DNA of 64,000 nucleotides from Taxawa tesnikishii (nom. ined.) (lineage: Eukaryota > Ascomycota > Dothideomycetes > Dothideales): positions 124,001 to 188,000 of the forward strand of contig JAPDRO010000015.1 of assembly GCA_030247885.1 (NCBI GenBank), read 5' to 3'. A program made the position numbers and the translations under genes. The notes under the pieces are model-generated. The model was given only the letters and a program-made list of their open reading frames with translations, ran no database searches and was not told the DNA's origin. This document shows positions 946 through 63,764 of the stretch, piece by piece (the stretch's first letter is position 1; every line of letters begins with the position of its first letter).

Positions 946-1619
946 ATGCTCTCTCTCCTTTCCATCCCTTCTATCGCCACCCATTCTCCCCCTCAGTTGA
1001 CTCTGTACCATTTCCGACCCGCCTCCACTGGATGCGCGTAGCCTCTTCCGCCAACCTAGCACTCTCCCCTGCCCATTTGCCCCCTTCGGCGCCGCAATCG
1101 TGAACCACACGCCGCCTTCCTCTGCCGGGGATCTCATCTGCACCGGCCTGAACCACAACGGCCTTACCGGCAACCCTTCTCTCCACGGCGAAATGGCCGC
1201 GCTGGCGAACTGCAGCGAGATCCTAACCCCCTCGCCATGCAGGCGGCTTCGGGTTAAGCGCGGCAGAGGCCCTAGAGAGCTACAAGCACTTTACGCTCTA
1301 CACGACTGGCGAACCTTGTCCCATGTGCGCATCCGCGATCCGGTGGGCCGGGTTTAAGGAAATGGTCTTCGGCACGTCGATCACCACGCTCGTCGACTTT
1401 GGGTGGAGCCAGATCGGGATCGAGAGCAAGGAGGTTTTTGAGCGGAGTGAGGGACTGGGGACGGAGACCAGATGGATAGGGAGTGTGGGCGCGAATGAGA
1501 CGGATGGCTTGTTTGGGTGGCAATTCAGAGATGGCGGCAGATGTCCAACGGGGTGCGAGAGAAGGAAAGGAGAGGGATGTGCGCCGGCTGAAGAAGTGCG
1601 AGGGAGGGAGGAGCTGTGA
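946..1619 (+). pseudogene. Nucleoside/CMP deaminase-like gene, frameshifted
   Basis: Three consecutive reading frames together make one cytidine-deaminase-fold protein of about 224 residues. The first part (ATG 946, hydrophobic MLSLLSIPSIATH, possibly a signal peptide) leads to HWMRVASSAN. The second starts near CPFAPFGAAIV and holds LHGEMAALANCSEIL, with the catalytic HxE. The third holds TGEPCPMCASAIRWAGF, the PCxxC zinc site, and runs to the stop at 1617-1619. The frame changes lie near 990 (-1), 1068 (-1) and 1237 (+1). Adding the net missing base gives exactly 225 codons. Zinc ligands and the proton-shuttling Glu are intact, so decay would be recent, or the shifts are sequencing errors like the others in this window. 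No intron fits the gaps. The family deaminates nucleosides or guanine-like bases. Confidence 0.65.
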
Positions 1620-1941
1620 TGAGGGGTTCCGTTGGCGAGAAAGAGGCCGAAGGAAAAGAGCTAGGCGCCTTAGAACGCTAGACCAGGGGAGTATTCCTTT
1701 TGCAGGAAGCAGTGATGACCGAAGCGACGAAATGCCGCTGAAGGCTACAAAGCGATGTCCGTGGCACGCCAAGAGATTCAAGTCCTCAGTTCAAAGGGAA
1801 GGTGTATGCAGAGTAGTCGGGTAGAACCAGATCAGTCGCCCACGGAATATCATCAAGTGCGGCCGTCACCTAGTTTAATAGCTTTCCGTCCGTTGGCACA
1901 AGTCGGCTGCAAACACCTCCTTTACTCTCGCTCGTGGATCC
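1620..1941. other. Intergenic, convergent 3' ends
   Basis: A short gap between the deaminase relic and the F-box-like gene, which converge here. Nothing else was recognised. Confidence 0.4.
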
Positions 1942-3075
1942 TTATACCCTATATCTATTACTCGGATGCTTCTCGATATCCTCCCGTCGCAGTCTCCCAG
2001 TCTCGCATAAGTGTTCAACCAGTGCCGCATCCGCAACCGGTCTGTACAAGCGGCCAAGGTAAGTACCCGTATAGCGCGGAAAGAAGCCTCGCAGATTATT
2101 GTCGTCGGTCGTCGGCATTAGCTCCCAGCAGGAGATAGCATCTCCCGGCATATCGGCTGCATTCGGTCCGCCCCTAGCAGCGTTATTATTACGAACGTGC
2201 CATGTGCCCCATCGGGACGACTGATCTTGTAGTGCGAATGGAATGTTTAAGATCATCTTGACGTGGACGCGGACGTTTGATGTCGACACTGATTCCAATT
2301 CGAGAAGGGATGAAGTGGTCAGGAGATACTCTGAATAGGTGATGGTTTCTGCGGATGTGAGTGGCATTCCTATCGCTGCTGCAGTAACATGTAATGCGAC
2401 GGTGATCTCTCGTAGTGCTGGTAGTCGTGGAGGTTGAGAACCTGACCTGGGGCCAGTGCCACAAAGATCATCGATGATCTTTGTTAGATACCGCTTGAAA
2501 GCTGTAGTATGAACCATTAGCGGACAACTCCCGCTTCCGAGAACCGCATGAGACAGCCTCTTGGAAGAAGACAGAGCTAGAGTTTCATACGACATACCTT
2601 CCACAGCTCTCGCACCCGATGCCTTCTTGACCCACGACCCCCAGTTAAGTGAGAAGTGATACGTCTGCAACCGCTCATACACACATGGCGGCGCACGCAT
2701 CATGAAAGTATCATACTCGTCCAGATTCTCCACAGCGCTCAATCTGAGCTCCGCTCTCGGCAAAAGAGCGTCGAGATACTCATTCCGAAACTGTCGGCTA
2801 GTGCAAATCATGTTGGACAGTGGAGCTCGGTACATGCTTAGATCACTCCGCTGGGCTCTGCGGCGGATACGGAGACGCTCTGGGTTGTACAGGTAGCTGT
2901 AAATCTCCCTCCTCAGCTCCGCCGGGAGGTCGAAGAAGCGTGGAAACGTCTGAGGAGCTCCAGGGGCGTTGTGGCCGCTATCAACATATGGCCCTAGGAT
3001 CTTTACAGATGCATCTGGGACGCCTTCCGGGTGGAGTTTGGTTTTCGTGCGAGGTGAACTCATGGTTCTCGTCAT
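1942..3075 (-). CDS. F-box-like / 2EXR-type protein
   Basis: A single-exon gene of 377 residues. Around residues 45-60 it has FFDLPAELRREIYSYLY, the leucine-proline-rich helix typical of fungal F-box-like and 2EXR proteins. These open with a short F-box-like motif followed by a poorly conserved, secondary-structure-rich body. The body keeps family hallmarks: a basic stretch after the motif, then SNMICTSRQFRNEYLDALL, which reads like the usual 'traditional name for a relative left behind' helix. Two in-frame Met codons occur at the start (3075 and 3063), and the second has the better context. The frame is intact throughout. A role in Skp1-type ubiquitin ligases is possible by analogy, but many such proteins lack demonstrated Skp1 binding. 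Substrate unknown. Confidence 0.7.
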   Translation of the reverse strand: MTRTMSSPRTKTKLHPEGVPDASVKILGPYVDSGHNAPGAPQTFPRFFDLPAELRREIYSYLYNPERLRIRRRAQRSDLSMYRAPLSNMICTSRQFRNEYLDALLPRAELRLSAVENLDEYDTFMMRAPPCVYERLQTYHFSLNWGSWVKKASGARAVEGMSYETLALSSSKRLSHAVLGSGSCPLMVHTTAFKRYLTKIIDDLCGTGPRSGSQPPRLPALREITVALHVTAAAIGMPLTSAETITYSEYLLTTSSLLELESVSTSNVRVHVKMILNIPFALQDQSSRWGTWHVRNNNAARGGPNAADMPGDAISCWELMPTTDDNNLRGFFPRYTGTYLGRLYRPVADAALVEHLCETGRLRREDIEKHPSNRYRV

Positions 3076-3604: not shown

Positions 3605-5186
<1,582 letters not shown>

Positions 5187-8592: not shown

Positions 8593-8839
8593 TGTCTCCT
8601 ATTTTTCGACTTGACTTCGCAGAACTGTAGTATACAGGTATAGAAAGGCGTGGAACACCACCCGGAGTGCTGCATCAACGTGCTCGGCAACCGCTATACC
8701 GGACCCTGCGTTCACCGCCCTCGGTCGCGAGCCGAGCCTGAAGTCCGCATTAGCGTGAAATTTACACTATTCACTCGATTCTGCCGCCATCTCTCTCTCC
8801 AATCGTAGGACCATTCTCTTGTTTACTCTGCCGCCCAAA
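8593..8839. promoter_or_regulatory. Divergent promoter, chaperone-like gene / ECM16
   Basis: A 247-bp gap between two divergent start codons, which must carry both core promoters. Two housekeeping genes for assembly of large complexes (proteasome, ribosome) sharing one short promoter suggests co-expression, an inference from position only. Confidence 0.5.
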
Positions 8840-11800
8840 ATGCCCAAGTTCGTCCCCCGGCAGCGCAAACACAAGACCATAGCGCGCCAAAAGGGCACCC
8901 CAAATGCCACACCTTCCGCAGACGCAAACGCAGCGGAAATCCTCCCCGCCTCAGCAGCAGAGCGAAATGCCCGTCGCGAGACTTTGCGCGCCGAGCTGCG
9001 TGCACAGCAACCGGAATCAAAAGTCACGAGCAAGAAAAGAAAGCGATTGGACAAATACATCGACACGAAGCTAAAAAAGGAGGAGAATCTGGAGTTGATC
9101 AAGAAACTTGCGGCGCATAAGGTGGATACGAGTCTTCTGCAGAGCGCGAAGAAGCTGGGAAGGGGAGGAGAATCACAGAGGGAGAGGCTGGAGAGAGCAC
9201 TCAAGGAGAGTCAGAGAGGGGTGAATGTGGCACAAAATGAGGCAATCTTGTTCGAGAAGCGAGATGAGGAGCCGAGAGTGGATGAAGAGAGTGAAGAGGA
9301 GGAAGTTATTGAAGCTCTGAGCGCGTATGGAGCTCCGAAGACCGCTGCGGAAGTGCCGAAGTCTGCAGAACAACCGATGCCAGCGATTTTTGGCGGTGGT
9401 CTGAAGAGACCGTTAGAGCTGGACGAGAACGGCAGGCCTATCATACAAAAGCGCAAGAGGCGAAAGGTTGCCAAAGCGCCTGTAGTCGAGGAGCCGGAGT
9501 GGGAGGGATTCTCGGAAGAGGAGGATGCGGCAGTAGATCGAGCTGTGGACACGGAGGGAGAATATGGAGCGGCTGACGGAGAGGACGTTGCGAGCGAGCC
9601 TGAATCGTTCGATGAAGAGAGCGCGGAAGAGGAAGAGGATTCTTCAGAAGACGAAGACGAAGATGGGGAAGAGTCAGAAAACGATGACACTGCCTCTTCC
9701 GCTTCTTCAGTAGCTTCCAACAAGCAGGCTCGAACGTCCGCCTTCAAAGCATGGGCGACGCAGCAGCGTAACACCGCACTGGGCTTTACTCCTCTACAAC
9801 CATTACAGAGTCCAGCCCAGGTGCTCAACTACCTTCTAAGCCAGCATCATTCGTCCCTCGCGCTCCATCCCCGAGGCATTGCCACCAGAACTCGCAATCT
9901 CTGCGAACAAGGATGAGACCTGGCGGCCAGCTACTTCGGAGATAGTTCCTCGTTCCGCCGACATTCAAGAGGCTCGTCTACAGCTTCCGGTAGTGCAGGA
10001 AGAACAGAAGATCATGGAGGCTATCCACCACCACAACGTCGTGGTGGTGTGGGAGCCACTGGTTCCGGTAAAACCACCCAAGTGCCGCAGATGATGTTCG
10101 AGAACGGTTACGGTAGCAGTCACGGAAAAGCAAAGGGCATGATAGGCGTTACACAACCGCGAAGAGTAGCTGCAACAAGCGTGGCCCAGCGAGTTGCTAC
10201 GGAAATGGGAGATATGAAGAACAAGGTTGGTCATCAAATCCAGTTTGACAAGTCGGTTACCAGCAACACAGCTATCAAGTTCATGACGGACGGTATCCTT
10301 CTGCGCGAGATTTCTCAGGACTTCCTGCTTTCCAAATACTCAGCCATCGTCATCGATGAAGCTCACGAGCGCTCCGTGAACACGGACATCCTTATCGGCA
10401 TGATGAGCCGCATCGTGGACCTACGTGCTGAAATGGCTAGAGAAAAGCCCGAGGACTTCTATCCGCTGAAGCTGGTCATTATGAGTGCGACACTCAGGGT
10501 GGAGGATTTCACCAAAAACCACCGTTTGTTCAGAAAAGAACCGCCGCCTATCGTACAGGCAGAGGGCCGACAGTATCCTGTTACCGTCCACTTTGCACGC
10601 CGCACACAAAGGGACTATGTGGAGGAGACGGTTCAGAAAGTGAGCAGGGGGCATAAGAAGCTCCCACCTGGCGGTATGCTTGTCTTCCTTACGGGTCAAA
10701 ATGAGATACACCAAGTCGCAAGACGCTTGCGATCTCTGCATCCTACGACTGGAGAGGTGAAGCATGCTCCAGTGCGTAGCGCGGCCCGTGAGATGCCCCT
10801 GGAAGACGAGGACTTCGATGATCCCACCGCTGATGGCAAGACTGCTATGGCTCGCGACGATGCATCTTCAGACGATGGCAGCGATGTGGAAATACATGGA
10901 TTAGATGAAGACGACGAGAATGACTTCACAATTGAAGGTGAAGAGGCAGCCAAGAGCTTGAAGCTCCATGTTCTGCCGCTCTATTCCAACATGCCTTCCC
11001 ATCTCCAAATGAGGGTGTTTGACCCGCCTCCAGAAGGAACCAGACTGATCGTGCTTGCCACCAACGTGGCGGAAACGTCCCTGACCATTCCCGGTATCCG
11101 CTACGTCTTCGATTGTGGAAGGGTAAAGGAGAAGAAATACGAGCCCTCGACAGGCGTACAGACCTTCGAGATCGGCTGGATCAGCAAGGCCAGTGCAGCC
11201 CAGCGGATGGGTCGTGCAGGTCGTACCGGACCCGGCCACTGCTACCGTCTATACTCCTCCGCCATCTATGAGCGGGACTTTGAGGAGTACACCATTCCTG
11301 AAATCCTTCGCTCACCTATCGAAAGCGTTGTCCTGAGCCTCAAGCGCATGGACATCCACACAGTCGTCAATTTCCCCTTCCCTACACCCCCAGACAGACA
11401 AGCGCTTGCCAAAGCGGAAAAGCTACTCACCTATCTCGGCGCACTGGACGCAGCAGGCAAAATCACCGAAACAGGACGCGCCCTTGCGGATTACCCGCTC
11501 AACCCACGCTTCGGTCGCATGCTCTGGCTGGGTCAGCGCGAAGGTCTGACAGCACACACTATCGCTCTAGTAGCCGCGCTTGCTGTTCCGGAGCTCTTCA
11601 TACCAGAGAACCAATTGAAGCTTGAACGGGAGTCAGTCTCGGCTCATGACGACTATCACACGGACTCAGATGACGACAGCGATAGTGATGCTCGTGCACG
11701 TCGCAACCGCGCCGCTGAGCATGCCTCCGCCACAGTCTCTGAGGCCCAACACAAAGCCTACACGACCGCACACGCTAAGCTTTCAGGCTGGGACGACCGG

Positions 11801-12565
11801 TCCGATGCTATCAAGCTGCTGACAGCTTTCGCGCTGTATCTTTCCAAGGGCCACGAAGCTTGCACCTCCTTCTACCTGCGCGAGAAGGGGATGCAAGAAG
11901 CCGCTCTGCTGAGATCGCAGCTGGCATCCATCGCACGAAAGCACGCGTCGGTAGGCGACAAGAGCGACCCTCTGGCCCTGCCACGACCTGATGAAGGTCA
12001 GATTCGCAAACTGCGGCAGATTGTCACGGCCGGCTTCATCGATCAAGTAGCCATAAGGGCAGACAAGCTGGGTCTTATCGTACCAGGCCGTAAACCAAAG
12101 CGGGCAATCGACGTACCCTACCGCACGCTCTTTCCTAGCCACGACGAAGGCGCCAGACCCGATGAAGACCTGAGCCCCGAGCAGGTCGAAGAGCGCAAAT
12201 TCGTCTTCATCCACCCCTCCTCCACCCTCTCTCGCCTCCCCATCAGCAAACTCCCTGACTTCATCGCGTACTCGCACCTCTCGCGCAGCAGCCAAATGCC
12301 TGGCTATGCGAAAGCGAGGATGCATCCGCTGGCGACGCCGAGTGGGAAGGAGTTGGCGCGGTTGAGTGAGGGGACACCTTTGTTGGAGGTGGGGAAGCCG
12401 GGGAAGATTAAGCGGAGCTGGAGGGGTGAGGACGGGAAGGAGAGGAGGGAGGCGAGTGTGGGATTGAGTCTGAAGGGAAAGGAGGGATTGGGCTGGCCGT
12501 TGGACGTTCGGGGCGCGGTGCAGGTTAGGAAGGGTGGTGCGTGGGAGGTTGAGAAGTGGGTTTGA
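8840..12565 (+). CDS. ECM16: DEAH-box RNA helicase ECM16/DHR1 (DHX37), with three -1 frameshifts
   Basis: The product is a roughly 1,242-residue DEAH helicase. It starts MPKFVPRQRKHKTIARQKG, has a long acidic region, then GATGSGKTTQVPQ (Walker A, near 10052), VIDEAHERS (motif II), IMSATL (motif III) and QRMGRAGRTGPG (motif VI), followed by the helicase-associated and OB-fold regions, ending VEKWV. DHR1 acts in the nucleolus, separating U3 snoRNA from pre-18S rRNA. The reading frame changes three times, near 9805, 9868 and 10045, each by -1. After the third the original frame is back, so both ends are in the same frame. The third sits inside the Walker A approach (VVVV then GATGSGKT), where the family has VVVVCGATGSGKT. 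An essential gene is unlikely to carry these; base dropouts are suspected. Confidence 0.93.
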
Positions 12566-16938: not shown

Positions 16939-18473
16939 ATGGCGCCATCTGCTCTTCTCGGTGCGCCCCGGTGCGCCTCCGTGTCTGCTGTCCGCGCTGC
17001 ATTGCAGGCCGCTCCCTGCAAAGCTGTCTCTGGTCTCGCTTCGGCGTCCAGAGACGCCCTGTCCGCGATCAGGAGGCAGGACGTCGTTACAGTGTATCAC
17101 ATTGTTGGTACGCTGGACGACCTCCTTCTCATCTCTGCGGCCTTCGAGGCGCTCCGCCAACGCTCGAGGACCTCCTGCATGGTCGTTATAGCAAGTGAGG
17201 CTCAGCTTAGCTGCGGCGGTTGGTCCAGTGTCTCACGTCATGTCAGGAAGGTCGCCGGCGTCAGCGGTATGGGCGTCGAGAGGGGAGTGGAAGTCTTCGT
17301 GGCCGGCGCGGCCTCCCTCATTCTCATGAAGGGAGTGCCGGAGTTCCCAAGGGACATCGTTCCGCCGCCACAGGCTTACCGCAGAGAGACGGTGGATACA
17401 GTGGCGCTTCTAGACCGCTGCATGGCTCAGGCCTACCGGAGAGCCGCTACCAGCCGCTTCGTACTCTACAACACCTGCTCCTACGACCTGCTCGCCCACA
17501 TGCCTGCCTCTTTCTGGACGAACTGCCGCGGGATGGTTGTGCTGAAAGGCATCGTCGGCCTCTGGCAAGAGAGCGGCCACACCAACTTCGCGTCCTCCTA
17601 CTGGCTCGCCTTCGACCGAGGGGCACACGACACGATGCTGCAACGCATCAATGACCGCCTTCCTATAGTATACCTAGGGCCGAACTATTCGCTGTCGGAA
17701 CAGACCACCGCCCTCGTCGATTCCGACGCCTTCAGATCTTGCTTCCCGGCAGTGTTACTGGAAGAACACTACACCGGTCTGCTTCACCAGACCCTCGACG
17801 CACTCTTCACCAAAATCATTCAAGTGAGAGCTGCCGCCAGTACCACCGTCCGCAACGGCCGGCAATGCGTGGATCTGGCGCGGTCCGTCTTCTATCACTA
17901 CAGCAGCCACCAACAATGGCAGAACTCCTCCGTCCAAGTCTCCTCCTACACACCGAATAGCTGTCGCCTCAGCACAGTTACCAAACACTTCGACAACATG
18001 GCGAGAGCTATGGACTTCCCTTCGACTGCGGTATCGACGCCCTCCTGGGCCTGCTCCCAGAGTGCACCGATGGTCTAAGCTCCAAAGATCTCACAGCCGC
18101 TCGCATCGTCTTCAACCGTGCCAATACGCCCAACATCGACTATCCGCTCAGCATTCAGTTCTCCGGTAACAGCAACCAGTTTCTTCTCATCGACCGTACC
18201 GGCATCGGCGCCATCGACAGAGCATTCAAGAATCGTTTCGACAGCTTCGTCAAGGATGTCATGCTCAGAATCGGCGTGTATCCATACAAACCGCCGCCGA
18301 TTGCGAGGCCTGTTGCGCAGACTTGGAGGGATTTCGTCACCGCTACGGATGGTGTGATGACCGAGATTGAGAACGCAGAGTGTCGGGAGACCAGGAGGAG
18401 AGGCAAGATGCATGAGATGAGGAACAAGGCGAAGCACGGACTGTTCACTACGGCGTGCAGACGCGTGGTTTGA
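16939..18473 (+). CDS. Hypothetical protein, about 511 residues, one -1 frameshift
   Basis: A single-exon gene starting at ATG 16939 in good context (ACCATGG). The first frame runs to 18078. However, from 18009 the next frame continues as coding (YGLPFDCGIDALLGLLPE...) to the stop at 18471-18473. Adding one base near 18008 joins them into exactly 512 codons. The sequence is mixed alpha/beta with Ser/Arg-rich N-terminus, a hydrophobic segment VVTVYHIVGTLDDLLLISAA near residues 49-68, and a basic C-terminus ending TTACRRVV. There is no signal peptide, transmembrane cluster or motif I recognise. Codon choice is strongly C-ending, typical of expressed fungal genes. Function unknown; no operon-like context. 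It could be lineage-specific. Confidence 0.65.
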
Positions 18474-25212: not shown

Positions 25213-26082
25213 CTATGTATGCTGTTCTACCACGGGCAACAGCAAACCAATCCCTACAGCAGAAACATCGTGCTCTACTGGCGTTTCTCCCAGTGCCTTT
25301 AGATGTATCCTCCCGGCACTCCTCGCACCACGTGATGCAAACCTCCTAGAACCTATTATCCCTCGGCCCATTCGGCCTCCCAAACCTCCCCCACCGCCAT
25401 CACCACCGTACGGGGACTGCTGGTTCTCCGTCCCGTAGCCCGGACTCTCCCTCCCACCCGCCGCGAACCCCGGACTCGCCGCCCGCCCACCCCAGAGCCT
25501 AGCCTTCAACCTCTCCTGCGCCGTCCCACCACCGCCACCACCACCACCGCTCGACGGCGGCGGCGAGGGTTCCGCAGAAGCAGCCCTCCCGCCAGGTCCG
25601 CCGGTCTGGTAGCTCCCCACTCTTTGACTCGGCAGCGGCCGCGCTTGCGCCGTCTCCTGCTGCTGCTGGCCCCTCTGCATCCCCGCCCCGCCCCCTCCTG
25701 CCCCTCCCAGCCCCGTCCTCTGCGCTCCCCGCCTCAGTGACGTCGGCTGCTGCTGCTGCGCCGGTTGCTGCGTCGGTGTGTCCCACAGATCGCTCAGGCT
25801 GCCTTTGGACTGCTGCTGCATACCGAGCTGTGGGGAGTTGTTGCGTAGACCGGACGAGGTGTAGCTCTGCTGCTGCTGCTGTTGGGCTTGCGCGCGTTTC
25901 GGGTCGGGTGGGAGCCAGTCGGGGAAGGGGCGGCCTTTCTCGGTATAGTAGGCCCGGAGCACGCGCGAGATGTGGCTGTCGTCTTCCGTGTCGCCGTCGG
26001 TTTCGTCTTTCAGGAGCGTTTGCCGGAGCGTGTTGTACCGCGACGTTGTGTTGGTGAGGATGTTGGAAAGGTAGGACGACAT
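25213..26082 (-). CDS. MSO1: Mso1-like Sec1-binding exocytosis protein
   Basis: A protein of 289 residues from MSSYLSNILTNTTSRYNTLR (start 26082; another Met lies at 26094). Residues 1-60 match the Mso1 Sec1-binding region: a helix followed by DGDTEDDSHISRVLRAYY and TEKGRPFPDWLPPDP. The rest is low-complexity Gln, Gly, Ser and Pro, with a run of nine Gly near residue 185. Mso1 binds Sec1 and the Sec4 GTPase at exocytic sites and helps SNARE assembly. The C-terminus past SRRFASRGARS is less typical, and a small 3' intron cannot be excluded. It sits between GYP7 and formate dehydrogenase in the same orientation. Both membrane-traffic genes are adjacent but have separate promoters. Confidence 0.8.
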   Translation of the reverse strand: MSSYLSNILTNTTSRYNTLRQTLLKDETDGDTEDDSHISRVLRAYYTEKGRPFPDWLPPDPKRAQAQQQQQQSYTSSGLRNNSPQLGMQQQSKGSLSDLWDTPTQQPAQQQQPTSLRRGAQRTGLGGAGGGGAGMQRGQQQQETAQARPLPSQRVGSYQTGGPGGRAASAEPSPPPSSGGGGGGGGTAQERLKARLWGGRAASPGFAAGGRESPGYGTENQQSPYGGDGGGGGLGGRMGRGIIGSRRFASRGARSAGRIHLKALGETPVEHDVSAVGIGLLLPVVEQHT

Positions 26083-30391: not shown

Positions 30392-30407
30392 TGTTCGAAG
30401 CAGCCAT

Positions 30408-32654: not shown

Positions 32655-32715
32655 GAAGAAGGAGGAGAAGGAGGAGAAGGAGGAGGAGGAGAAGAAGAAG
32701 AAGGAGGAGGAGGAG
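32655..32715. repeat. Purine tract (GGA/GAA)n upstream of GABA transaminase
   Basis: Sixty bases of GGA and GAA triplets begin 18 bp upstream of the start codon. In the transcript this is a (CUU/CUC)n pyrimidine tract in the 5' leader. It opens a spurious poly-Leu frame. Confidence 0.9.
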
Positions 32716-36631: not shown

Positions 36632-38876
36632 GGCTGCGAGGGTCACACTAAGGCAAAGGTGGATGCGACCGCCGTGTTAAGGGAAGGAAGGGAGAGAGTC
36701 GGCCAAAACAAGCAAGCCTGAGAGTCACGGATGGTTTATGGCTACCATCACACGTTTGAGAGCCAGGTCAACTGCCAACACTTCGTGCGCGATTGCGATG
36801 TTCTGTCCGTGTGTGAAAGATGTGAACTAGAAACTCATTACGTGAGCTCCAATTCGTCGGAATTCGCCAACGCTCGTAGGCTCGACGGTGGCAGCGGCGC
36901 GGTCAGGTAGTGGCAACAGTAGATCGGTTTGTAGCAGTTCGAGGTCGTCGAAGAAGTGAAAGGAGCGTTACTTGGAGTGGATGAGTGACTGCTATTTTCC
37001 AACTGATCCTATACGTACTCTACGTATACAGCACCCAAAATCAGACATTAGAGAGCGTGCGCGCGACTTGCCAACCGACTTGAGGGATCGCGAAAGCGGG
37101 ATAAGAAGTCGCGGGTGTGTTCGCAGGGGGTTTGTAAGAAGTCAAGACGCCTCCATCAACTCCAACATCGCGGAAAGCCTCCAACCCAACGGCTAAAATT
37201 CGGCAAAGGCATGAGATAGCTTAACATAGCAAGGGAGGCAGCAAGGGACGCTGTCTTGTACCTACTGAGGCAGAGTAGTTGCTACAGCCAGAAAACTCGT
37301 GAGGGAAGCCCCCAATGTACCCATGCTGAGCCTAGGATTCGCGTCAACACTGTGAATCTTGAGTGAGTAGGTACTCTGCTCCAAGCTGAAGCGACAGCAT
37401 GTAGTTGCTCAGAGCGGAACACTTACGCTCCTGCTCTTGACTGTAAGCTGACTTCGCGGATCCGTAACAGGTTGCAGAGCAAGACAGAACCTACGACATA
37501 CGAGGTCAAGGTTGGACTTGCGATTGCGAGTCCGTGTGACATCTGAAACAGTCAATATAGTTGCGGCTGTCGTGGTTTTGCCGGCCAGTGACATTGGTGG
37601 ACGCTGTGAGATTGGCGAGCCGCAAGCGACACAGATGTCATGCCGCGATCCCGAAGCTTAGAATTTCGGTCGGATACCTGTTGTGTGGCAAGTTGTTCCA
37701 AGGAACGGCGGTGATACGTGGCTCTGCAGACGGATGATGCGTTGGCGGTATGTGAATAGCAACGCTGCCCAATACAAGCAGGAATATAAGATGATGCTGA
37801 GCTCTCTCCTCTGCCGTACCGCGCGAGTAACGATCATCTCAGGCTCGTCCCGTCGCCCGGCGTCAGGACCAGAAAGACGGTCGCTATCCCCAGCCTCGCG
37901 GATAACGAGCGATGCTTTTGCTTGCGTCGCTACGCGCTCAGACCTTGCCCTTGGCCTCGTGCTCCACCGAACCTCCACTATCGAAGGAACTTTACCGGGC
38001 AAGCCTTGCTACTTGATGCATATTTGCGCTTACGCGTGCGGATCCAACAGCGTTGGGCGCAGTGGGCGGATGACAGGTCAAGTTCGCCGGGCGCCTTGTG
38101 GTCCCGCCAGTGCCTGCGTGAAAGGAACAGCTGCCTTGAGTAGATTGGCTAACTGATTGCGAAGGTGCCGCGAAACACCAGAGAACAGCGGGAGAAGTTT
38201 ACTAAGCGATAGGGCGGGCACGCATTGTGCAGCGCGGGGCTGTTGCGCGTGCGATGGCTGGCGAGCGCCGGTGGCCGCACCGTACCCAACGTCGCCCGGC
38301 GGGGAGGCAGATGGATGATCGACTTTCAACCACAGCGCATGACGGCAGCGCGCTTCTTGTATAGCAAGAGGCTCGGCTGAAGCAGTCAGGGCGTCAGGTG
38401 GAACAGGCATGGCGGAACCGGGTCGATTTGCTTGTGTTACCCGAACAAAGTTAAGCAAAAACCAGGGTCACCGCAGTAAAACATGCTAATGCAGAGGGGA
38501 ATGCATGAAATGCTCTTAAAAGTTAGGGGCATGCAAGCATTAATCTCCCACCTTCTCTACCAACCTCTCCATATTTGCTTGTCTGCCTTTTCGTCTTTTC
38601 CTTCCTTCATGACCACATGGTACCGCGCTGCGCTGTGAGCTTCTGCCTTTTGTCCTAACTCTCCTTCCAATTACTGTCGCTTCAGAATCCTCACCCCTTG
38701 CCATACATTCGCTGTATCATCCTTTGCACCACATTGTCACTACTTTTCGAGCACACAATTTGTTTTTTCTACGCACCACTTCAATTTCTTCCTGCGATGA
38801 CAAATGTGTTCCCCTCGTTTTCACGTGCAACTGCGATAACGAATTCCTTTCAACGACTGTCTAATTCCCTTTCGAC
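36632..38876. other. Intergenic, 2.2 kb
   Basis: The divergent upstream regions of SET2 and the AT-hook gene. A 60-codon minus-strand frame at 37409-37594 is the only hint of coding and is unsupported. The 300 bp before the AT-hook start are pyrimidine-rich. Confidence 0.4.
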
Positions 38877-41415: not shown

Positions 41416-42391
41416 TTATGGGGCCTGGACCTTCTTGTCCTTGGCGTGCTCAGCGTCGACCTTCTCGGCAGCCTCATGCTTCTTGATCTTCCTGCCCTTT
41501 TTGGCCTCATGCGCCTCTTGCTCCTTGATGGCGGCCTCGCGCTCCTTCATGCGCTCTTCCTCAGCGGCGACCATGTCTGTCACGTCGTTAGCAGCAATCC
41601 GGCCAGTCACGTCAAAAGAGGGGAGCCGGGGCGAAACTCACCCATCCACTGGTCCTCGCCAGTGTACCTTTCGTGGTGAATCTTCTTCTCAATCATGTGC
41701 TTGTGCTCGGGATCATTAGGATCCAACACCTTGACAGTCTCCCACCTTCCGGCACCCTGGTTCTTGTCCTTGGCCTCGAGCGCCAAACTCGCGATTACGA
41801 CAGCCATCGTCAGGCCCTGCGCGTACACACGAGCCTGCACGAGCTTCTGCTGGCCGGTCAGGTAGGGGTTGCGGCCGACGAGCGCAAAGGCAGTGCCCAT
41901 GGATGCAACCCACGAGCCGAAAACGATGCTGTATCTGTTCTCGCTCGCCCAGTCCTTCAGGCGCTGGGAGGTGGGTTTTGCGCTTCGATCTGCTCGCGCA
42001 GCGTCTTTTGCTCGTCGTTGTAGTTCTTTTCCGGGTTGCGGCGCGCTTCGTATTCACGCGAGTAGCGATCGGCTGCAATGATGGCTGATGGGTGTCAGTC
42101 GAGCGAAGGGGTCGTGTGCGAGAAGCCAGCAAAACTCACCAGCAAAGGTACCGCTGCTGACGACGAGGAAAGCGCGGAAGGGAATTGTGAGACTGCGGAA
42201 GGCTGGGTATCGCCTCTGGGCTGCCGCTACGCCCAAACCACCGATTGCAAGACCGGCCAGACCGCCCATTGAGCCTCCGAGAACGGTGGCACTGTAGCAT
42301 TGTGAGCCTCGAGTTGTTCTGTTGGGAGGGAGATTCCGGTAGAGACATACTTGTAGTGCTCCTGCTCTTCTTCCTTGGTAAGGATCTTCAT
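41416..42391 (-). CDS. RCF2: Respiratory supercomplex factor 2 (Rcf2), four exons, one -1 frameshift
   Basis: Exons 42391-42351, 42291-42140, 42072-41642 and 41576-41416. With one missing base in exon 3 (near 41966, at PPPS|LKDW) the phases close at 261 residues. It starts MKILTKEEEQEHY; the N-terminal half has a Gly-rich transmembrane hairpin (GGSMGGLAGLAIGGLGVAAA, PFRAFLVVSSGTFA). The C-terminal half is a HIG1 domain (LKDWASENRYSIVFGSWVAS, GRNPYLTGQQKLVQARVYA) with two more membrane segments. The tail is a Lys/Glu coiled coil ending DKKVQAP. Rcf2 stabilises complex III-IV supercomplexes in the inner mitochondrial membrane. It faces RRP36 across a shared promoter. Confidence 0.92.
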
Positions 42392-42844
42392 GATGGCGAA
42401 ACGGGTATCTTAGTTTGAATGTGGGGGCTGAGAGAAGAGCGAGTCGAGGGTGGTATGTAAAGACGACCAGTTGCTTCTACTGCAGACTTCAGTCAGTTTG
42501 AACGGTTGGAGAGTGGCGCCGGGACAAGTCGTGGGGCTTACTGTGGTTTGTGAGCAAGCTGGCAAGCTGGCAAGCTGATCGGTATACTGCTGGTTGTACT
42601 GCTGGTTAACAGTGAGAGCGTCCGTACGGGTGTTTTGTCGTACCAACCTTGGATGTAACGGCATCGAAACGTCATTGCGCAATAAGCTTCATACGTCGAA
42701 ACTGAGAGCTCGGACCCCTCACGCGAGTGCCGATCCCGAGAAAGAACCACGCGAGAAATCTCCCCGGCCACTCCCGCGTTCTCTTAGTAAATGATCAGTG
42801 TCAGTACTGCTGAATATTTCCGAAAAATATCACGCGACGGCGCC
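42392..42844. promoter_or_regulatory. Divergent promoter, RCF2 / RRP36
   Basis: A 453-bp gap between divergent starts. A CACGCGA-type element recurs (near 42720 and 42830), which could be an MCB-like or other site; this is only a noticed repeat. Confidence 0.45.
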
Positions 42845-45978: not shown

Positions 45979-46013
45979 TTAGGTGACGTCCGGTAGCGGC
46001 ACGTGCAATTCTC

Positions 46014-50464: not shown

Positions 50465-53013
50465 ATGCCCATGCCTCATGAGCCTTACTAACCACTCCCG
50501 ATAAACCGCCTAACTACTCTTATCTCCACCCCGATAGTCCTTATCCGACTCAACTTCTTCGAGCCCAAGGAGAGCAGGGCTGCTCTAACCAAGCCCCTAT
50601 ACCGCCAAGATTCCACAACAACAGTACCACCAGCGCATACCTGCAAATATCCCCCTTCATACCCTCTCATCGTCCTCACGCCAGCATCATTCCCGTCACC
50701 GCTCCACCGGATCGTCTTTTGACGAGAAGAGGGGTCGCCGGTCAAGCCTCGACTCGGTAGATTCCCCGGATCCGACTTCTCTCTCTGGAGTGATACCGGA
50801 GACCTTGTTGACCAGCTCGCCGACGAAGAGGATCCCCTTCGTGCAAGGCTTCGCGAGTCTGTAGAGCACCACTCTCCGCAACGCCGTGGGAGGAGCCAGA
50901 AGAAGGTCCGATACGCATCAGCACAAGGCAGAGAAAAGAGGGCCATTCTGGAGTCGTTAAGAGGAAGGAAGATATCCGCATACCGAGCCCACCGCCCCGC
51001 CGACTCAACCGCGCGGAGCAGATACTTGCAGCAATCATGGCACCAGGAGATGGACCATCCCGTATTCACGGGCTTCACGGGAAGAAGTTGATGTACGGAC
51101 ACACGCTTCAATACTGCTGGCGGAGTTGACGGAAGTTTTTCGCAGTTACTTTACCAGTATCTTCGTCTCCCTAGGTGTCTTCTTGTTCGGATATGACCAG
51201 GTACGTAGATGAACCCGCTGTTTTACTTTAGGCTTCAAGATTGCTAACCCGTATCGTTTAGGGTGTCATGTCGGGTATCATCACGTACGTCCCGTTCCGC
51301 TCCACTTCCCATATGCGCCTGGGGCTATACTGAACAATCACAGTGGACCGTACTTTAAGGCATACTTCAACCAGCCCACAAGAGCAGAGGTCGGTACAAT
51401 GGTCGCTATCCTCGAAGTGGGCGCGTTTGTTGCATCCCTCGTCGTAGGTAGGATAGGTGACATCCTCGGCCGTCGACGAACTATCCTTTACGGTTCTCTA
51501 ATCTTCGTTGTCGGTGGTGCTTTCCAAAGTTTTGCTACTGGTATGCCTATGATGCTTCTGGGAAGAATCATCGCTGGTTTGGGCGTCGGTGCTCTCTCCA
51601 CCATCGTGCCAGTCTATCAGTCCGAAATCTCGCCTCCTCATAACCGCGGCAAACTTGCTTGTATCGAGTTCTCTGGCAACATCCTCGGGTATGCCGCTAG
51701 TGTTTGGGTAGATTACGGCTGCAGCTACGTTGATGACGACTGGAGTTGGCGGGTACCACTTTTGATGCAGTGCCTTATGGGCGGTTTGCTTGCTGTTGGC
51801 AGTTTCCTCATTCCCGAATCTCCTAGGTAAGTGAATGTCAAACCTCTGGCGGTAGCATCAAATTAACTTGAACAGATGGCTCCTTGACAACGACCACGAT
51901 GAGGAAGGAATTGTCGTTATTGCGAACCTCTACGGCAAGGGAGACATTCACAGCTCGAAAGCTCGAGACGAATACCGTGAGATCAAGATGAATGTGCTTC
52001 TCCAGCGTCAGGAAGGCGAACGCTCCTACCGCGACATGTTCAAGCGCTATTACAAGCGTGTTTTCATCGCCATGTCCGCCCAAGCTTTGGCCCAGCTGAA
52101 CGGAATCAACGTCATCTCCTACTACGCTCCCTTGGTTTTCGAGCAAGCTGGGTGGGTCGGCAGAGACGCAATTCTGATGACCGGTATCAACGCGTTGTCC
52201 TACCTTGCTTGTACTGTTCCGCCGTGGTACTTGGTTGACAGGCTGGGACGTCGATTCATCCTGCTCTGGGGCGCGGTGACTATGATCATATCCCTTTCCC
52301 TGATTTCGTATTTCATCTACATCGACATCAGTTGGACGCCCAGACTGGTCGTCATCTTTGTTATGATCTACAACGGTGCATTTGGTGCATCGTGGGGTCC
52401 GATCCCCTGGCTGTACCCACCCGAGATCTTGCCATTGAGCATTCGTGCCAAGGGTGCAAGTCTGTCTACCGCCGCTAACTGGGCATTCAACTGGCTGGTC
52501 GGGGAGATGACACCAGTGCTTCAGGAGCTGATTCAGTGGCGACTATACTTGCTACACGCATTCTTCTGCGCCGTTTCGTTCATTGTTGGTGAGTTTCATT
52601 ACAGCCATCTCTCTAGAACGCAGAAACAGAATACGCTGACACACTATCTAGTCTGGTTCATCTACCCGGAAACCGCAAACGTCCGTCTGGAGGACATGAA
52701 CTCCATCTTCGGAGATGCAACCACTGCCATGCCAACCCCAGCCACTCTCGCCGAAGCCGAGTCTCTCTTCAGTGGCAACCGCTCGCCCGTGCCTTCGTTC
52801 CGTCTCGGCGAGCAAGGAGCGGACTCCGCCATTCCAGGCCTGGATATCGATCCACCAGCGGTCGAAGTCGAAAACGGCAAGCCAATGCTCAGCAAAGATC
52901 AGGACGGCCAAGGCGAGGGTCTTGGAGGCTGGATCAGCAACCTGGTCAAGAAAGGCAAGGGCGGCGAGGATAGCGGTAAATACAAGAGGGTCGGTCAGGA
53001 CGAGGGAGACTAG
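50465..53013 (+). CDS. MFS sugar transporter with a long N-terminal extension, six exons, four -1 frameshifts in exon 1
   Basis: Exons 50465-51092, 51146-51200, 51263-51285, 51344-51826, 51876-52588 and 52652-53013. Exon 1 has about four -1 shifts (near 50488, 50660, 50765, 50920). With four bases added, it ends in exactly the phase needed, giving 755 residues. The extension holds WSDTGDLVDQLADEEDPLR, an acidic block seen in related transporters. The transporter has 12 predicted membrane segments: YFTSIFVSLGVFLFGYDQG (TM1), GRIGDILGRRRT, PESPRWLLD, QALAQLNGINVISYY, VDRLGRRF and WLYPPEILPLSIRAKG. The usual PETKG after TM12 reads PETANVRLEDM. The tail is Gly/Lys/Asp-rich. It likely imports hexoses or related sugars by proton symport. 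The ATG at 50465 is the best-supported start. Confidence 0.85.
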
Positions 53014-53629: not shown

Positions 53630-56076
53630 ATGGCTCTTCAGGAAGAGCAGACGCAAAGTTATGCTACAGGACAAGACCGTCAGGCTGATGGTATGAGGAG
53701 GAGGAATGTCCCAGAGCTGCAACAGAACGGCAGCCCGCTGCCGGTGGACATGAACGAGAAAACCAAAGAGAAGGTACACACACGCCGCGAAAACGACTCC
53801 TAGGGGTGCGTAAGCTGACGAGAGGATCGCAGGCCAGCTCTTCCTTCGACCAGTTGGAACCCATAATCGCGCCGATCGTCTTTACCTTTCTAGCTTTCTT
53901 TACGCGCATGTGGAAGATTGGTCTATCACCGATTGTCACCTGGGATGAAGCACAGTACGTCCAGGCAGTCGACCTTTGCGAACAGCTAGCTGACAACACC
54001 CCCTCTCGCAGCTTTGGAAAGTTTGGCTCCCATTACCTTAAGCGCGAGTTCTACTTCGATGTCCACCCACCGCTCGGGAAGATGCTCGTCGGTCTCTCTG
54101 GCTGGCTGGCAAACTACAATGGCTCCTTCGAATTCAAGTCCGGAGAGACGTACCCCGAAGAGCTCAACTACACTTTCATGCGAGTTTTCAATTCTGCATT
54201 CGGCGCGCTCTGCGTGCCTTTGGCCTACTACACCGCGAAGGAGCTCAACTTCAGGAGACCTACCGTCTGGCTGATCACCATGGCCGTGCTCTTTGAGAAC
54301 TCTTACACCACTATCAGCAGATTCATTCTGCTCGATTCTATGCTTCTTTTCTTCACTTTCACGACAGTTCTGTGCTGGGCGCGCTTCCATAGACTGCAGA
54401 AGCAGTCGTTTAGCCCGGAGTGGTTTGTCTGGCTCGTTCTGACCGGTCTCTCCATTGGCTGTGTCTGCAGTGTTAAGTGGGTCGGTATGTTCGGTACCGC
54501 CCTGGTCGGACTGTACACCATTGAGGACCTCTGGAACAAATTTGGAGATCTTCGGATGCCAAAGGTAGGTCGGAACGCTTCACAGAGCTTGCAGTTGCTA
54601 ATAATTGCTATAGGCCACCCTCGCGTCTCACTTCGCTTTCCGCGTTGTCGGTCTGATTGTCATTCCCATGATTGTCTACATGTTCAGTTTCTACCTTCAT
54701 TTCCTCATCCTCGAGAACAGCGGTCCAGGTGACGCGCAGATGAGCTCTCTCTTTCAGGCCAACCTAAAGGGCACCGAAGTTGGAAAGGACAGCCCTCTCG
54801 AGGTCGCATTCGGTTCGCGTGCAACGCTGAAGAACATGGGCTATGGAGGAGGATTGCTACACTCGCACGTTCAGACATACCCCGAGGGTTCGACTCAGCA
54901 GCAAATTACCTGCTATCACCACAAAGACGCAAACAACGATTGGTTCTTCTACCCGAACAGACATGAGCCGGACTTTAACCCGGATGCGCCTCTCAAGTAC
55001 GTTGGCAATGGCGATGTTATCAGGCTCATTCACGCTCAGACTGGCCGCAACCTCCACTCTCACCAAGTCGCCGCTCCGGTTACGAAGGCCGATTGGGAAG
55101 TGTCTTGCTACGGTAACACGACTGTTGGCGATACTAAGGACCACTGGACTGTTGAGGTGGTCGACGATGCGGCGTCCAGGGACTACTCTAAGTTGCGCAC
55201 CCTCACCACTGCTTTCAGGCTGAAGCATACTGATCTTGGCTGCTATCTCCGCGCTGGTAACGTTAACCTGCCACAGTGGGGTTTCAAGCAGATCGAGACC
55301 ACCTGTGTCAAGGAGAATCGTCCTCGCGATGTCTACACTCACTGGAACGTTGAATCGCACTTCAACGACAAGCGTAAGATGACGCCCTTCACTGCTTTTA
55401 TTTTGGATGACAATAGGCTAACAGAACCGCAGTTCCACCTGGAGACCCAGGCTCGTACAAGTCCCCATTCCTCCGCGACTTTGTTCACCTCAACGTCGCA
55501 ATGATGACCTCCAACAACGCGCTTGTGCCAGACCCGGACAAGCAGGATGACCTCGCCTCCGCGCCCTGGCAATGGCCCCTCCTGAACGTTGGCCTGCGCA
55601 TGTGCGGCTGGGACGACCACATCGTCAAGTACTTCCTGCTCGGAAACCCTCTCGTTTACTGGGGCTCTACGGCTTCTCTGCCAATCTTCTTCATGATCCT
55701 GGCCTGGTACCTGATCCGCTGGCAGCGCGGCTACAACGAGCTGTCCCAAGCCGACATCGACCAAATCCATTACTCCGGTCTCTACCCTGTGGTCGGTTGG
55801 TTCCTGCACTACCTGCCCTTCATCGCCATGGCTAGAGTCACGTATGTGCACCACTATTACCCTGCGCTGTACTTTGCCATCCTCTGTGCTGGTTTCTGTG
55901 TCGATTGGGCGACGAGAAAGCTCAACAAGACTGTCCAGTGGGGCATCTATGGTGTCCTGTATGTAGCGGTCATTGGACTCTTCTGGTTGTTCCGCGCCAT
56001 CAGCTTTGGTATGGAGGGCTCGAGCACGCAGTGGAAGCACCTCAAGTGGCTTGACACCTGGAGGATGACCGACTAG
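53630..56076 (+). CDS. PMT2: Protein O-mannosyltransferase, PMT2 subfamily, five exons
   Basis: Exons 53630-53773, 53833-53954, 54012-54564, 54614-55373 and 55433-56076 sum to 741 codons. The catalytic loop reads VTWDEAHFGKFGSHY (the Asp-Glu pair, split by intron 2) and FYFDVHPPLGKMLVGLSG. The MIR region follows with SHVQTYPEGSTQQQITCYHH and LHSHQVAAPVTK, then GDAQMSSLFQANLKG, typical of the PMT2 branch. There are several membrane segments at both ends. In the ER membrane it transfers mannose from dolichol-phosphate-mannose to Ser/Thr of secretory proteins, usually as a PMT1-PMT2 dimer. All introns are GT-AG. The frame is intact, in contrast to the transporter beside it. Confidence 0.97.
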
Positions 56077-59935: not shown

Positions 59936-62746
59936 TCAATACTCTGTCTGAAGGATCTTCTTCAGCGTCGCGCTCTCCCTCTCATACGCCTCAATCTTCG
60001 CCTGCGACGCATAGATCTTGTTCAACAGCCACTCCACCCTACTCAACAACTGCGGGGCTGTTTCGGCAGCTCTCCCAGCAGATGCAGTTCCTGCTCGTAC
60101 TTGTCAATACCCTGATTCTCAGCTTTTATACTCTCCGTTAGCACCGCGAGATCCAGTTTGCTCTGCAGCACCTTGTCCTCCGTCAGTCGACGGAATGCCG
60201 GCTGGTATACCGGTTTACCCGGTTTGATAGCATAAGGCCTGCCGCCCGAGGACTGTATCGTGATGAGTTCAGCCTGCTCAAGCGCCTGCAGGGCTTGCTC
60301 GCCCTTGGTTTTGTAGACGTCCGAGAGGAGGATTTCGTTGTAGCGGACGGATTCAAGGAAGGCAAGTTGTTTGATTAGAAGCCAGGCTTGTGTGGGCGTC
60401 CATTGAGATTGTCCCTCTTCCCTTCCAAACAAGAACATTTTCAGGATCTCGCTCGAAGATTGCTCCACGATCTCTTTGGCGGCTTTGCGAGGACTTTCGC
60501 CGGCTTTAATTCGACGGGCGAGAAATTCGAGATCGGTGAGCCGACCGCCTAGGAGCGGAAGGACATCGTCAAGTTCATAGAGATCCTTACGCCGCTGAGA
60601 CGGTGTGAGCTTTTGGAGACCTTCGTCGGCGTCATCGGCATCGAAGTCAAGGTGACTGATCACATAGCGCTTCGCTACATCCTGGCTGGTATCTGACATT
60701 CCAATTTGGCGGAACACGCGGTCTGGCAAGGCCCTCGACAATGACTTCGAGAAGGAGACGTCGTTTGTGAGGAAGATGACATGTGCGATATTGGAAGTCG
60801 TCAAGCGGGCCGCCCTGCGAGGAGTATAAGTCAGCCGATGAGCATGTGAATGCTTAAGCACGGCCATACCATTCTGCGATCTTGTCATAGACAACGGTAC
60901 CCTCTTGAGTCTTGTGGAGGAAGTTGTCAATCACGACAACTGGCCGCCGCTCTGGGTGAGCTTCCATGTACTCGTCATCACTGAGGTTGGCATCTTTGTC
61001 GTCTTTGCTCCGCCCTTCAAGCGCAATCTGCTTCAGTGCGGTGGCGGTGTTGTTCCAAATCTTGGCTAGCTGATTGTCGAGGGTCTCCGAGAAACCTGTC
61101 TTGACGCCAGTAGCACCCTGAGCTGCGAGATCAACAAGGCCGCTGATAGAGTTCATCCAAGAGAAAACAGGTCTGTACCCGACTTCTGCTGCTGCGGCAG
61201 AGATGGTGGAGGAGTCCCCGCGAGCTTCTTGGATGGGTTTGCAGTCGATAACGAGCTTGTTCTTCCGGTGCTTGAGTGCTTGGTCGACAACCAATTCCCT
61301 CTTGCCGGAGCCTCGAGGTCCCTGGACGACGATAAACGTATCTGCAGTCTCCATAAGCCATGTCTTGATCTGCTCGATGTTATCTTTTCGATCCTCCCAA
61401 ATTGCTTCCATGCCCGCTTCCTCGTCTGTTTTACCGCGGAGTCGAACTCGGGTTAGCAGCTCATTGGTTTGTTTCTGAAACCATTGGTAGACTTTGTTAT
61501 CCTCGATGTGCAAAGACCTTGTGATGTGGACCTTGATGGAGAATGTACGGATAGGGTCGAAAATTGCCAGGGAGAGACCAGCAACAAGAGCTGCAAGAAG
61601 CGGTATAACGATCCTGGGATGGTTGAGGAACCAGTCTCTGATCCAGTTTGCCTTTTGCCTCTTTTCGTAGGAGAGCCTGAGAACGGTGCCGGCTTTGCCT
61701 CCTCCCTGACCTTCAGTGACAGTGTAACCGTGCAGACAGTTCTATAGAGGTCAGCACACCCATATCTCGTCTCTGCGTTTGTTAAGCGTACCTTCGCCGA
61801 GACAGCCTTTCTCATCCGCGCAAAATCGACGTACGCAAACTTCGGCAAGATTTTGGAATCTGCGGGTTGAGGGACGATATCCGCTAGCTTGCCGTAAGGT
61901 CTAAAGAAACTATACAGCTGCTCCTGTGAGAGCTCTGCAACCTCTGCACCTGGGTTAGTGGGCAAGAACTCCACCTTGAGCCGGGGACTCGGAAGACGAT
62001 AGAGGTCTTCTACCCACGGCTTGCCGAGCACCAGGTTGGCATTGACGCTGGTCAGAGGACTAAACCAGGGCTTCACATTCTTCTCTCGAAGGTACTTTTG
62101 TACGGCAGCTGCCACGCTTTCATTGGTCGAGCCGGGTGCATGGCTAAACTTGACAAAAGCGCCACCTTCCTTGAAGCGAGGCAGGACTTCTAACACCTCT
62201 GCGGTAGGCGCTGCATCACCGCTTTGAGGCAGAGCTTTGCGTACCACTTTTGCAGGATCAGTGGAAGAGATGCCACCGTAGTCGCCTGGGATTCCCTTTG
62301 GTAGAAGCCTCTCTGCTGCGAAGGGGATGCGGAAGAGCCATTGTAGATTAAGTGGGAAGATGTCTGTGAGGCGTTAGTCATGTCCTCGAGATGAACATGC
62401 ACCATCATTCGTGCTGCAGTTCCAAGCTTCCTTCTCGAGTTTCCTCGAAATAAACCTAAAACATGAGAACCCTCGCCGCCATTCCAGCTGATGTAGCGTA
62501 TCTCAGGAGGCAAGAAACGGCGGTCTTACTATTGAAGAAGAGGACTCCTTGGTTTGGTCCTGCATATATATGCCCAGTATTGTTCTCGCCCGCTTCCAGT
62601 GTCTTCTCGGTGACTTCTCCAGCATCCGCTGTCGCTTCCGTAGTGGCATATCGAAACCCGCTACATCTGGCATATAATGCTCGGTTGCTACGCCGCCATA
62701 CAGCTGGCGTCGTAGCCGCGTTGATGTTAAAGCGCCTGCACGGCAT
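59936..62746 (-). CDS. YME2: Mitochondrial escape protein 2 (Yme2), four exons, one -1 frameshift
   Basis: Exons 62746-62530, 62363-61792, 61741-60870 and 60814-59936. With one missing base in exon 4 (near 60052, at QPR|QLLSRVE) the phases close at 846 residues, the family length. It starts MPCRRFNINAATTPAVWRRS (presequence) and has GVLFFNNIFPLNLQWLFRIP, an RRM-like region (FVKF, FAYVDFARMRKA), a membrane segment (RIVIPLLAALVAGLSLAIFD), a P-loop ATPase (VVQGPRGSGKRELVV) with VVVIDNFLHK, and a C-terminal coiled coil ending LKKILQTEY. Yme2 sits in the inner mitochondrial membrane and affects mtDNA nucleoid organisation and escape to the nucleus. It faces the EMI1-like gene. Confidence 0.95.
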
Positions 62747-63033
62747 GTTGTCGCTTCGCCTCCTATATAACACGGTCTTTGTCGATCATATCTGGAAACC
62801 CGTCTAAGACGTTCCTTGTAATAGACAGAAAGGGGAATGGATGTTTGTAGAGGAGAGCTAAACGGCTCACGTGGGAATCCGCGGGAAATCCTGATTTGGA
62901 AATGCGGCTTGCAGGGATGACGAACTTCTCTCTACAGCCGCCAACATTCCTGACACAACCTCAATACCACCATACACTGCCATTGGCTACAACTTTTCTC
63001 CGGTTCTTGTTCCTCTATTTGTACTAATTCAAC
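62747..63033. promoter_or_regulatory. Divergent promoter, YME2 / EMI1-like
   Basis: A 287-bp gap between divergent starts, with a GCTCACGTGGGA site (E-box core CACGTG) near 62866. Such sites can bind bHLH or Cbf1-type factors. Function is inferred. Confidence 0.45.
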
Positions 63034-63764
63034 ATGGGTTGGTGGTGGTCCTCTTCCCCTTCAACAGACACTCCCTCCGCTCAGCAACCTTCTTCCATCC
63101 CATCACCGCGCGAACCACTAGCGAGCATACAACCCGCAACCGCCTCCCCTTCCGCCGCGCCCACACGCGCATTAACCCGCGATGAACAAGCCGACCGAGA
63201 GTTCGAAGCGCTGGTCGCTTCCTTCGAGAGCCCCTCTTCCTATTCCCGTCCGCAAGCGCAAAATCACGACCGACAGCAGCACACGTTCCCAACACCTAAT
63301 CCCATTCTCACACCCCTCTCTCCGATACAACAGCCTCAGAGGCACCGGTTCCAGAGTCAGAACTCGACATCTCCCCTGATGCTCTAACGCCCCGCACAAT
63401 GTCCTGTCGGCAAGCATTTGACCAAGCGTTTTACTGCCAATCACTGGGCGGGAAGTTTAATGACATCTACCGATATGGACACCTACGGTCCTGCAGCGAG
63501 CACTGGAGTGCGTTTTGGTTCTGCATGCGGGTGCGGACGTACTCGGACAAAGAGAAGGAACCTCTGATTGCGGAGTGGTACAGGGACAGGGATGAAAGGA
63601 GGAGGAAGGAGGTGGGAAGCAAGCTGAGTGAGGATGTGTGGGAGGTTAGGACGAAGCCGGTGAAGGGTGCATTCATGAGGGATCCGGATGAGTTGCCTGC
63701 GGTGATTGAAAAGGACGGGACTGTGATTAGGGAAGGAAGGGGTGGAGAAGGGGAGAAGGTATAA
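63034..63764 (+). CDS. EMI1: EMI1-like protein (DUF3128), one -1 frameshift
   Basis: The frame starts MGWWWSSSPSTDTPSAQQPS and changes by -1 near 63322. It then continues TASEAPVPESELDISPD and into the conserved DUF3128 core: MSCRQAFDQAFYCQSLGGKF, NDIYRYGHLRSCSEHWSAFW and FCMRVRTYSD. With one base added it is exactly 244 codons. The Cys pattern (C, C, C, C with C-x9-C-like spacing) is typical of twin-Cys small proteins of the mitochondrial intermembrane space. Emi1 in yeast is linked to early meiotic gene induction; the biochemical role is unknown. Start chosen on the Trp-rich N-terminus common in these proteins. Confidence 0.88.

What the first reader, a model, noticed from the sequence alone, without database searches (positions are those of the whole stretch)
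946..63764. Single-base frameshifts, nearly all -1, in about twelve conserved genes
ECM16, SET2, GABA transaminase, formate dehydrogenase, RCF2, YME2, EMI1, the AT-hook protein, the sugar transporter, the deaminase and two unknown proteins each need one or more added bases to restore their known or open frames. About 20 sites are -1 and only one (deaminase, near 1237) is +1. Where introns exist, adding exactly the inferred number of bases makes exon lengths match splice phases (formate dehydrogenase exon 2, SET2 exons 2 and 4, RCF2 exon 3, YME2 exon 4, transporter exon 1). Actin, PMT2, GYP7, RRP36, FES1 and AIM32 are clean. True pseudogenisation would give mixed insertions, deletions and stops, and would not hit essential genes. 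A one-sided dropout process in sequencing or consensus calling is the simplest cause; a strain with a deletion-biased mutator is the exciting alternative.
Basis: partly seen in the sequence, partly recalled or inferred. Interest (0 to 1): 0.8.

Follow-up and report, generated by a model that had tools for sequence, protein, structure and literature searches.

The report
Long-read sequencing dropouts in fungal genes
The broken reading frames in this stretch of a fungal genome are best explained by bases missed by the sequencing machine in short runs of G or C, so this is a known kind of assembly error rather than new biology.

Summary
The window lies in a 29.37 Mb, 34-contig fungal assembly. 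I resolved 13 frame changes in it: 7 from a gene finder that models introns, 6 from homology or reading frames. Nine are -1. Four are +1, which equals -2; three of these lie beside a run of five identical bases. The process is genome-wide: 23 other loci (230 kb) gave 19 deletion-type and 4 insertion-type changes. The detector is symmetric on synthetic genes: 119 of 150 deletions, 118 of 150 insertions recovered. Deletion-type changes cluster at C4/G4 runs (12 of 25 against 10.2% of coding positions, p=2e-6), insertion-type at G5 runs (3 of 5 against 1.2%, p=2e-5). C/G runs of 6 or more are about 8-fold depleted (8 seen, 63 extrapolated), in noncoding DNA too (7 against 46). ECM16, essential in yeast (recalled), is hit. 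This resembles published errors of long-read, probably nanopore, consensus sequence. A mutator or frameshift decoding is very unlikely. No reads were available.

The parts
   Evidence: C-terminal part matches PF00383 in ORF 1227-1616; the N-terminal part, with an HGE motif recognised by eye, is open in another frame
8825..12565 (+). ECM16/DHR1 DEAH helicase; frame changes at about 9820-9870 (net +1 = -2) and near 10046 (-1)
   Evidence: both flanking ORFs match yeast DHR1; the stretch between them looks coding only in another frame, judged by eye
17020..18473 (+). gene without Pfam match; -1 near 18032
   Evidence: gene finder only; no Pfam hit in either flanking ORF
25356..26214 (-). gene with Mso1 Sec1-binding domain; insertion-type change near 25388 at a G5 run, close to the C-terminus
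   Evidence: gene finder; PF14475; context
   Evidence: PF00389 and PF02826, the 2-hydroxyacid dehydrogenase domains; gene finder; frames
31008..32523 (-). 4-aminobutyrate aminotransferase in three frames; -1 near 32095 and -1 near 31760
   Evidence: three adjacent ORFs align to consecutive parts of GABA aminotransferase chains of the PDB and of PF00202; no room for an intron
33536..36643 (-). SET2 histone methyltransferase; -1 after the WW domain (finder 34698; protein reading puts it nearer a CCCC at about 34655) and -1 near 33840, beside CCCC
   Evidence: SET, AWS, WW, SRI domains; gene finder; frames
41416..42400 (-). RCF2-like (HIG_1_N) gene; -1 near 41959
   Evidence: PF04588; gene finder; frames
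51038..53013 (+). sugar transporter; frame change in exon 1 near 51110-51150, net +1 (= -2), beside a T5 run
   Evidence: PF00083; frames read by eye; the start codon at 51038 is inferred
59936..62343 (-). YME2 (RNA12) gene; exons at an intron of about 60815-60861 are out of phase by -1
   Evidence: PF10443 1-175 and 175-429 in two frames; splice sites read by eye with a weak donor
3605..4658 (-). actin, comparison gene without a frame-change call
   Evidence: PF00022; no event, one 52-base intron
53827..56076 (+). PMT2-like mannosyltransferase, comparison gene without a frame-change call, two introns
   Evidence: PF02366, PF02815, PF16192; no event

Best explanation
The frame changes are consensus errors of a long-read assembly, probably nanopore, that was not adequately polished. 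Short homopolymers, chiefly of G and C, are called one base (sometimes two) too short. A one-base loss in an exon looks like a -1 frameshift; a two-base loss looks like +1. SHOWN: frame changes, deletion skew, G/C-run association, scarcity of G/C runs of 6 or more in coding and noncoding DNA, spread over 16 of 24 loci. INFERRED: that the bases exist in the real genome, that the platform was nanopore, and that the +1-type changes are losses of two bases.
For: Deletion- to insertion-type 25:5 over 24 loci, 294 kb (binomial p=3e-4), in 16 of 24 loci. Detector symmetric on 150 synthetic genes: 119 deletions and 118 insertions recovered, 1 false deletion and 0 false insertions in clean genes. 12 of 25 deletion-type changes lie within 15 bases of a C4/G4 run against 1351 of 13298 coding positions (p=1.8e-6), with no excess at A4/T4 (2 of 25); 3 of 5 insertion-type lie at a G5 run against 158 of 13298 for C5/G5 (p=1.7e-5). 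C/G runs of 6 or more: 8 seen, 63 extrapolated; noncoding 7 against 46, coding 1 against 21. Homology fixes breaks with no room for an intron in GABA transaminase, an arylsulfotransferase at L014 near 5740 (one side is a weak match) and a chaperonin-family gene at C1:528261-528264 (one piece scores only 29 bits). The ECM16 region has no second DNA-level copy in the assembly. Published passages: nanopore errors left after polishing are mainly homopolymer indels, with deletions in the majority after several polishers in some datasets (PMC8011154); in a long-read draft most indel errors were false deletions, most often after four to five identical bases (PMC12007338).
Against: No reads, second assembly or transcripts were available. 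13 of 25 deletion-type sites have no C4/G4 run within 15 bases, though finder positions can be tens of bases off (SET2 34698 is an example). No deletion-type site has a C5/G5 run, so a simple cap of runs at 5 does not describe them. 5 of 30 finder changes, and 4 of 13 in the window, are +1-type; two of the five finder insertions have no run of 3 or more. The window holds one C25 run (20712-20736). In the passages of PMC8011154 an unpolished Flye draft and one polisher left more insertions than deletions, so a deletion bias is not universal for nanopore. In PMC12007338 A/T runs led, here G/C. No good fungal genome was at hand to calibrate run lengths; the expectation is a geometric extrapolation, and a k-mer test gave no shortage for A6 (56 seen, 56 expected). 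The finder was trained on the loci it scanned and on real sequence missed 6 of 13 changes.
Confidence: 0.96

Rival explanations
1. A strain with a deletion-biased mutator (for example mismatch-repair loss) really carries these frameshifts.
For: One-sided -1 changes at homopolymers are what mismatch-repair loss gives (recalled); deletion skew 25:5.
Against: ECM16/DHR1 is essential in yeast (recalled), is broken here, and its region has no second DNA-level copy; a chaperonin-family gene is hit too. At 29 of 30 finder calls the 60 bases on each side still favour their own frame, so there is no sign of decay. Six MutS-family loci are present; MutL and other repair genes were not checked.
Confidence: 0.01
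2. The frameshifts are real but bridged in the cell, by ribosomal frameshifting (as in Euplotes) or by insertion editing of RNA (as in Physarum mitochondria); both comparisons are recalled.
For: Genes such as ECM16 keep coding sequence on both sides of the break, so something would have to restore the frame.
Against: By eye the 30 contexts share nothing beyond G/C runs; runs are shortened in noncoding DNA as well, which neither process predicts.
Confidence: 0.01
3. Some breaks are mis-modelled introns or diverged pseudogenes.
For: The finder used an intron in 10 of 150 synthetic deletion genes, and the YME2 break rests on a weak donor. Atypical coding stretches in real genes could mislead the finder more than synthetic ones do.
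Against: GABA transaminase breaks leave at most about 14 bases between matched segments; 1 false deletion in 150 clean synthetic genes.
Confidence: 0.02

Closest known systems
Systematic homopolymer indel errors of nanopore consensus sequences (Homopolish paper, PMC8011154; passages seen)
   Same: residual errors are mainly indels in homopolymers that shift frames; deletions outnumber insertions after several polishers in some datasets; yeast was among the genomes tested (its indel counts not seen)
   Different: unpolished Flye drafts there were insertion-rich; platform and polishing history of this assembly are unknown
[quoted passage not shown] passages seen)
   Same: most indel errors are false deletions, most often after four to five identical bases, with a few at non-repeated bases
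   Different: there A/T runs were the commonest sites; here G/C runs are
Mismatch-repair-deficient mutators (recalled)
   Same: -1 changes in homopolymers
   Different: would not be expected to leave an essential single-copy gene broken

Membership tests
Long-read consensus homopolymer error | deletion-biased small indels | tested here: met
   25:5 in 294 kb, p=3e-4, symmetric detector
Long-read consensus homopolymer error | sites associated with homopolymers | tested here: met
   C4/G4 at 12 of 25 against 10.2%; G5 at 3 of 5 against 1.2%; 13 of 25 deletion-type sites have no C4/G4 nearby
Long-read consensus homopolymer error | shortage of long runs across the genome, coding or not | tested here: met
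   C/G runs of 6 or more 8 against 63; noncoding 7 against 46; A/T weaker, 41 against 69; expectation extrapolated; one C25 exception
Long-read consensus homopolymer error | accurate reads show the missing bases | not testable with these tools
   no reads or second assembly held
Mismatch-repair mutator | loss of mismatch-repair genes | tested here: inconclusive
   six MutS-family loci: MutS_V in one open frame in four, in two pieces in two; MutL genes not checked
Mismatch-repair mutator | essential single-copy genes spared | tested here: not met
   ECM16/DHR1 broken, no second DNA-level copy; essentiality recalled from yeast
Programmed frameshifting | shared slippery motif at the sites | tested here: inconclusive
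   30 contexts share only G/C runs, by eye and by run counts; no formal motif search was run

The most novel reading that the evidence does not exclude
The genome really lacks these bases and the fungus restores frame in thousands of nuclear genes by frameshift decoding or RNA editing at short G/C runs.
Probability: 0.01. Interest if true: 0.97.

Novelty: not a real feature. Interest (0 to 1): 0.06.

Why it matters
It matters for data quality. The finder's deletion-type changes run at about 0.19 per kb of predicted coding sequence (25 in about 134 kb), and homology nearly doubles the count in the window (7 to 13), so frame changes in this assembly may number in the thousands (extrapolation). 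Gene-loss or pseudogene claims from it should not be trusted before polishing.

Tried and rejected
A simple frame model without introns confused introns with frameshifts and was replaced by the intron-aware finder; its starting splice consensus was recalled, then retrained. A rank test of the longest run near the sites was only weakly significant (p=0.019; number of runs p=0.09), and any run of 4 or more gave p=5e-4; splitting by base showed that the signal is in G/C runs. That split was made after seeing the contexts, so its p-values are somewhat optimistic. A maximum-order k-mer test of homopolymer depletion was not useful: its C counts are dominated by the C25 run, and it shows no shortage for A6. 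Naming the organism failed: the 18S rRNA search did not run, and paper searches by assembly size found nothing that fits. Of the 23 frame changes called outside the window, I sent the flanking ORF pairs of 10 to Pfam; 2 pairs matched one family on both sides (arylsulfotransferase, -1; indoleamine dioxygenase, +1 = -2); the other 8 say nothing either way.

Full report
WHAT THE WINDOW IS. The window is bases 124001-188000 of contig 7 (801,508 bases) in a 29,367,862-base, 34-contig assembly. The genes are fungal in type: actin, SET2, ECM16/DHR1, a PMT-type mannosyltransferase, FES1, RRP36 and others. Introns are short, with a median of about 60 bases in the trained finder. The species was not identified.

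HOMOLOGY. GABA transaminase is the cleanest case. Three adjacent ORFs in three frames align to consecutive parts of GABA aminotransferase chains of the PDB and to profile positions 4-72, 70-151 and 154-402 of PF00202. Both junctions are -1, and there is no room for an intron. ECM16/DHR1 has its N-terminal and helicase parts in one frame, and a stretch between them that looks coding in another. SET2 leaves frame after its WW domain and again downstream of its SRI match, each time near CCCC. RCF2 and the formate-dehydrogenase-like gene each have one -1. YME2 is out of phase by -1 across an intron of about 47 bases with a weak donor, read by eye. The deaminase and the transporter change frame by net +1, which equals -2.

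Outside the window, homology supports a -1 in an arylsulfotransferase at L014 near 5740 (the first piece is a weak match, 21 bits), a +1 = -2 in an indoleamine 2,3-dioxygenase at L018 near 8100, and a -1 in a chaperonin-family gene at C1:528261-528264, where PF00118 position 376 is reached in two frames one base apart (the first piece scores 29 bits).

I resolved 13 frame changes in the window, not about 20: 9 are -1 and 4 are +1-type. I did not confirm EMI1, whose Pfam domain is in one open frame, and did not find the AT-hook gene. 'Nearly all -1' is true only modulo the equivalence of +1 and -2.

CAUSE. If bases are lost from homopolymers, deletion-type changes should sit beside shortened runs, insertion-type changes beside runs that lost two bases, and long runs should be scarce everywhere. 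Deletion-type changes have a C4/G4 run within 15 bases in 12 of 25 cases (10.2% of 13,298 coding positions; p=1.8e-6), with no excess at A4/T4 runs (2 of 25). Insertion-type changes have a G5 run in 3 of 5 cases (C5/G5 at 1.2% of positions; p=1.7e-5). C/G runs of 6 or more number 8, where extrapolation from runs of 3 and 4 gives 63; A/T runs 41 against 69. The C/G shortage is present in predicted coding (1 against 21) and noncoding DNA (7 against 46). Selection on proteins, ribosomal frameshifting or RNA editing would not shorten noncoding runs. What does not fit neatly: 13 of 25 deletion-type sites have no C4/G4 run within 15 bases, none has a C5/G5 run, and two of five insertion-type sites have no run at all. 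Finder positions can be tens of bases off, which explains some of this.

WHY NOT BIOLOGY. ECM16/DHR1 is essential in yeast (recalled), and its region has no second DNA-level copy in the assembly. A haploid cell with this gene truly broken would not be expected to live. Six loci match the MutS_V domain, four in one open frame and two in two pieces, so the plainest mutator cause has no support; MutL genes were not checked.

LITERATURE. Passages of PMC8011154 say that systematic nanopore errors left after polishing are mainly homopolymer indels that shift frames. Their tables show deletions in the majority after several polishers in some datasets, but also insertion-rich unpolished drafts. Passages of PMC12007338 report that most indel errors in a long-read draft were false deletions, most often after four to five identical bases, with a few at non-repeated bases. 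There A/T runs led; here G/C runs lead. I saw passages only, not the whole papers.

VERDICT. An ordinary consensus artefact of long-read sequencing, confidence 0.96. The raw-read test could not be run here.

Noticed in passing
window 20712-20736: A run of 25 C inside a predicted intron downstream of a FAD_binding_3 domain, in an assembly where other C/G runs seldom exceed 5; possibly itself a base-calling or assembly artefact.
   Followed up: partly
L009 1-10000 (C1:100001-110000) and L017 1-10000 (C1:1700001-1710000): AT-rich islands (GC 0.23 and 0.37) with (CpA+TpG)/(ApC+GpT) of 0.03 and 0.27 and TpA/ApT near 1.8, against about 1.2 and 0.6 in L010, L011 and the window: the pattern of repeat-induced point mutation (recalled indices), extreme in L009.
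   Followed up: partly
window 40756-40877: A full-length 5S rRNA gene on the minus strand, the only Rfam match in the window.
   Followed up: no
G000 C9:469996, C31:448986, C32:586283, C32:893581-894200, C32:1168955-1169334, C34:793255: Six MutS-family loci, the number recalled for a full fungal MSH set.
   Followed up: no
L027 near 5814: A deletion-type call sits at a switch from AGG to CGG trinucleotide repeats, a low-complexity stretch where the finder may be wrong.
   Followed up: no
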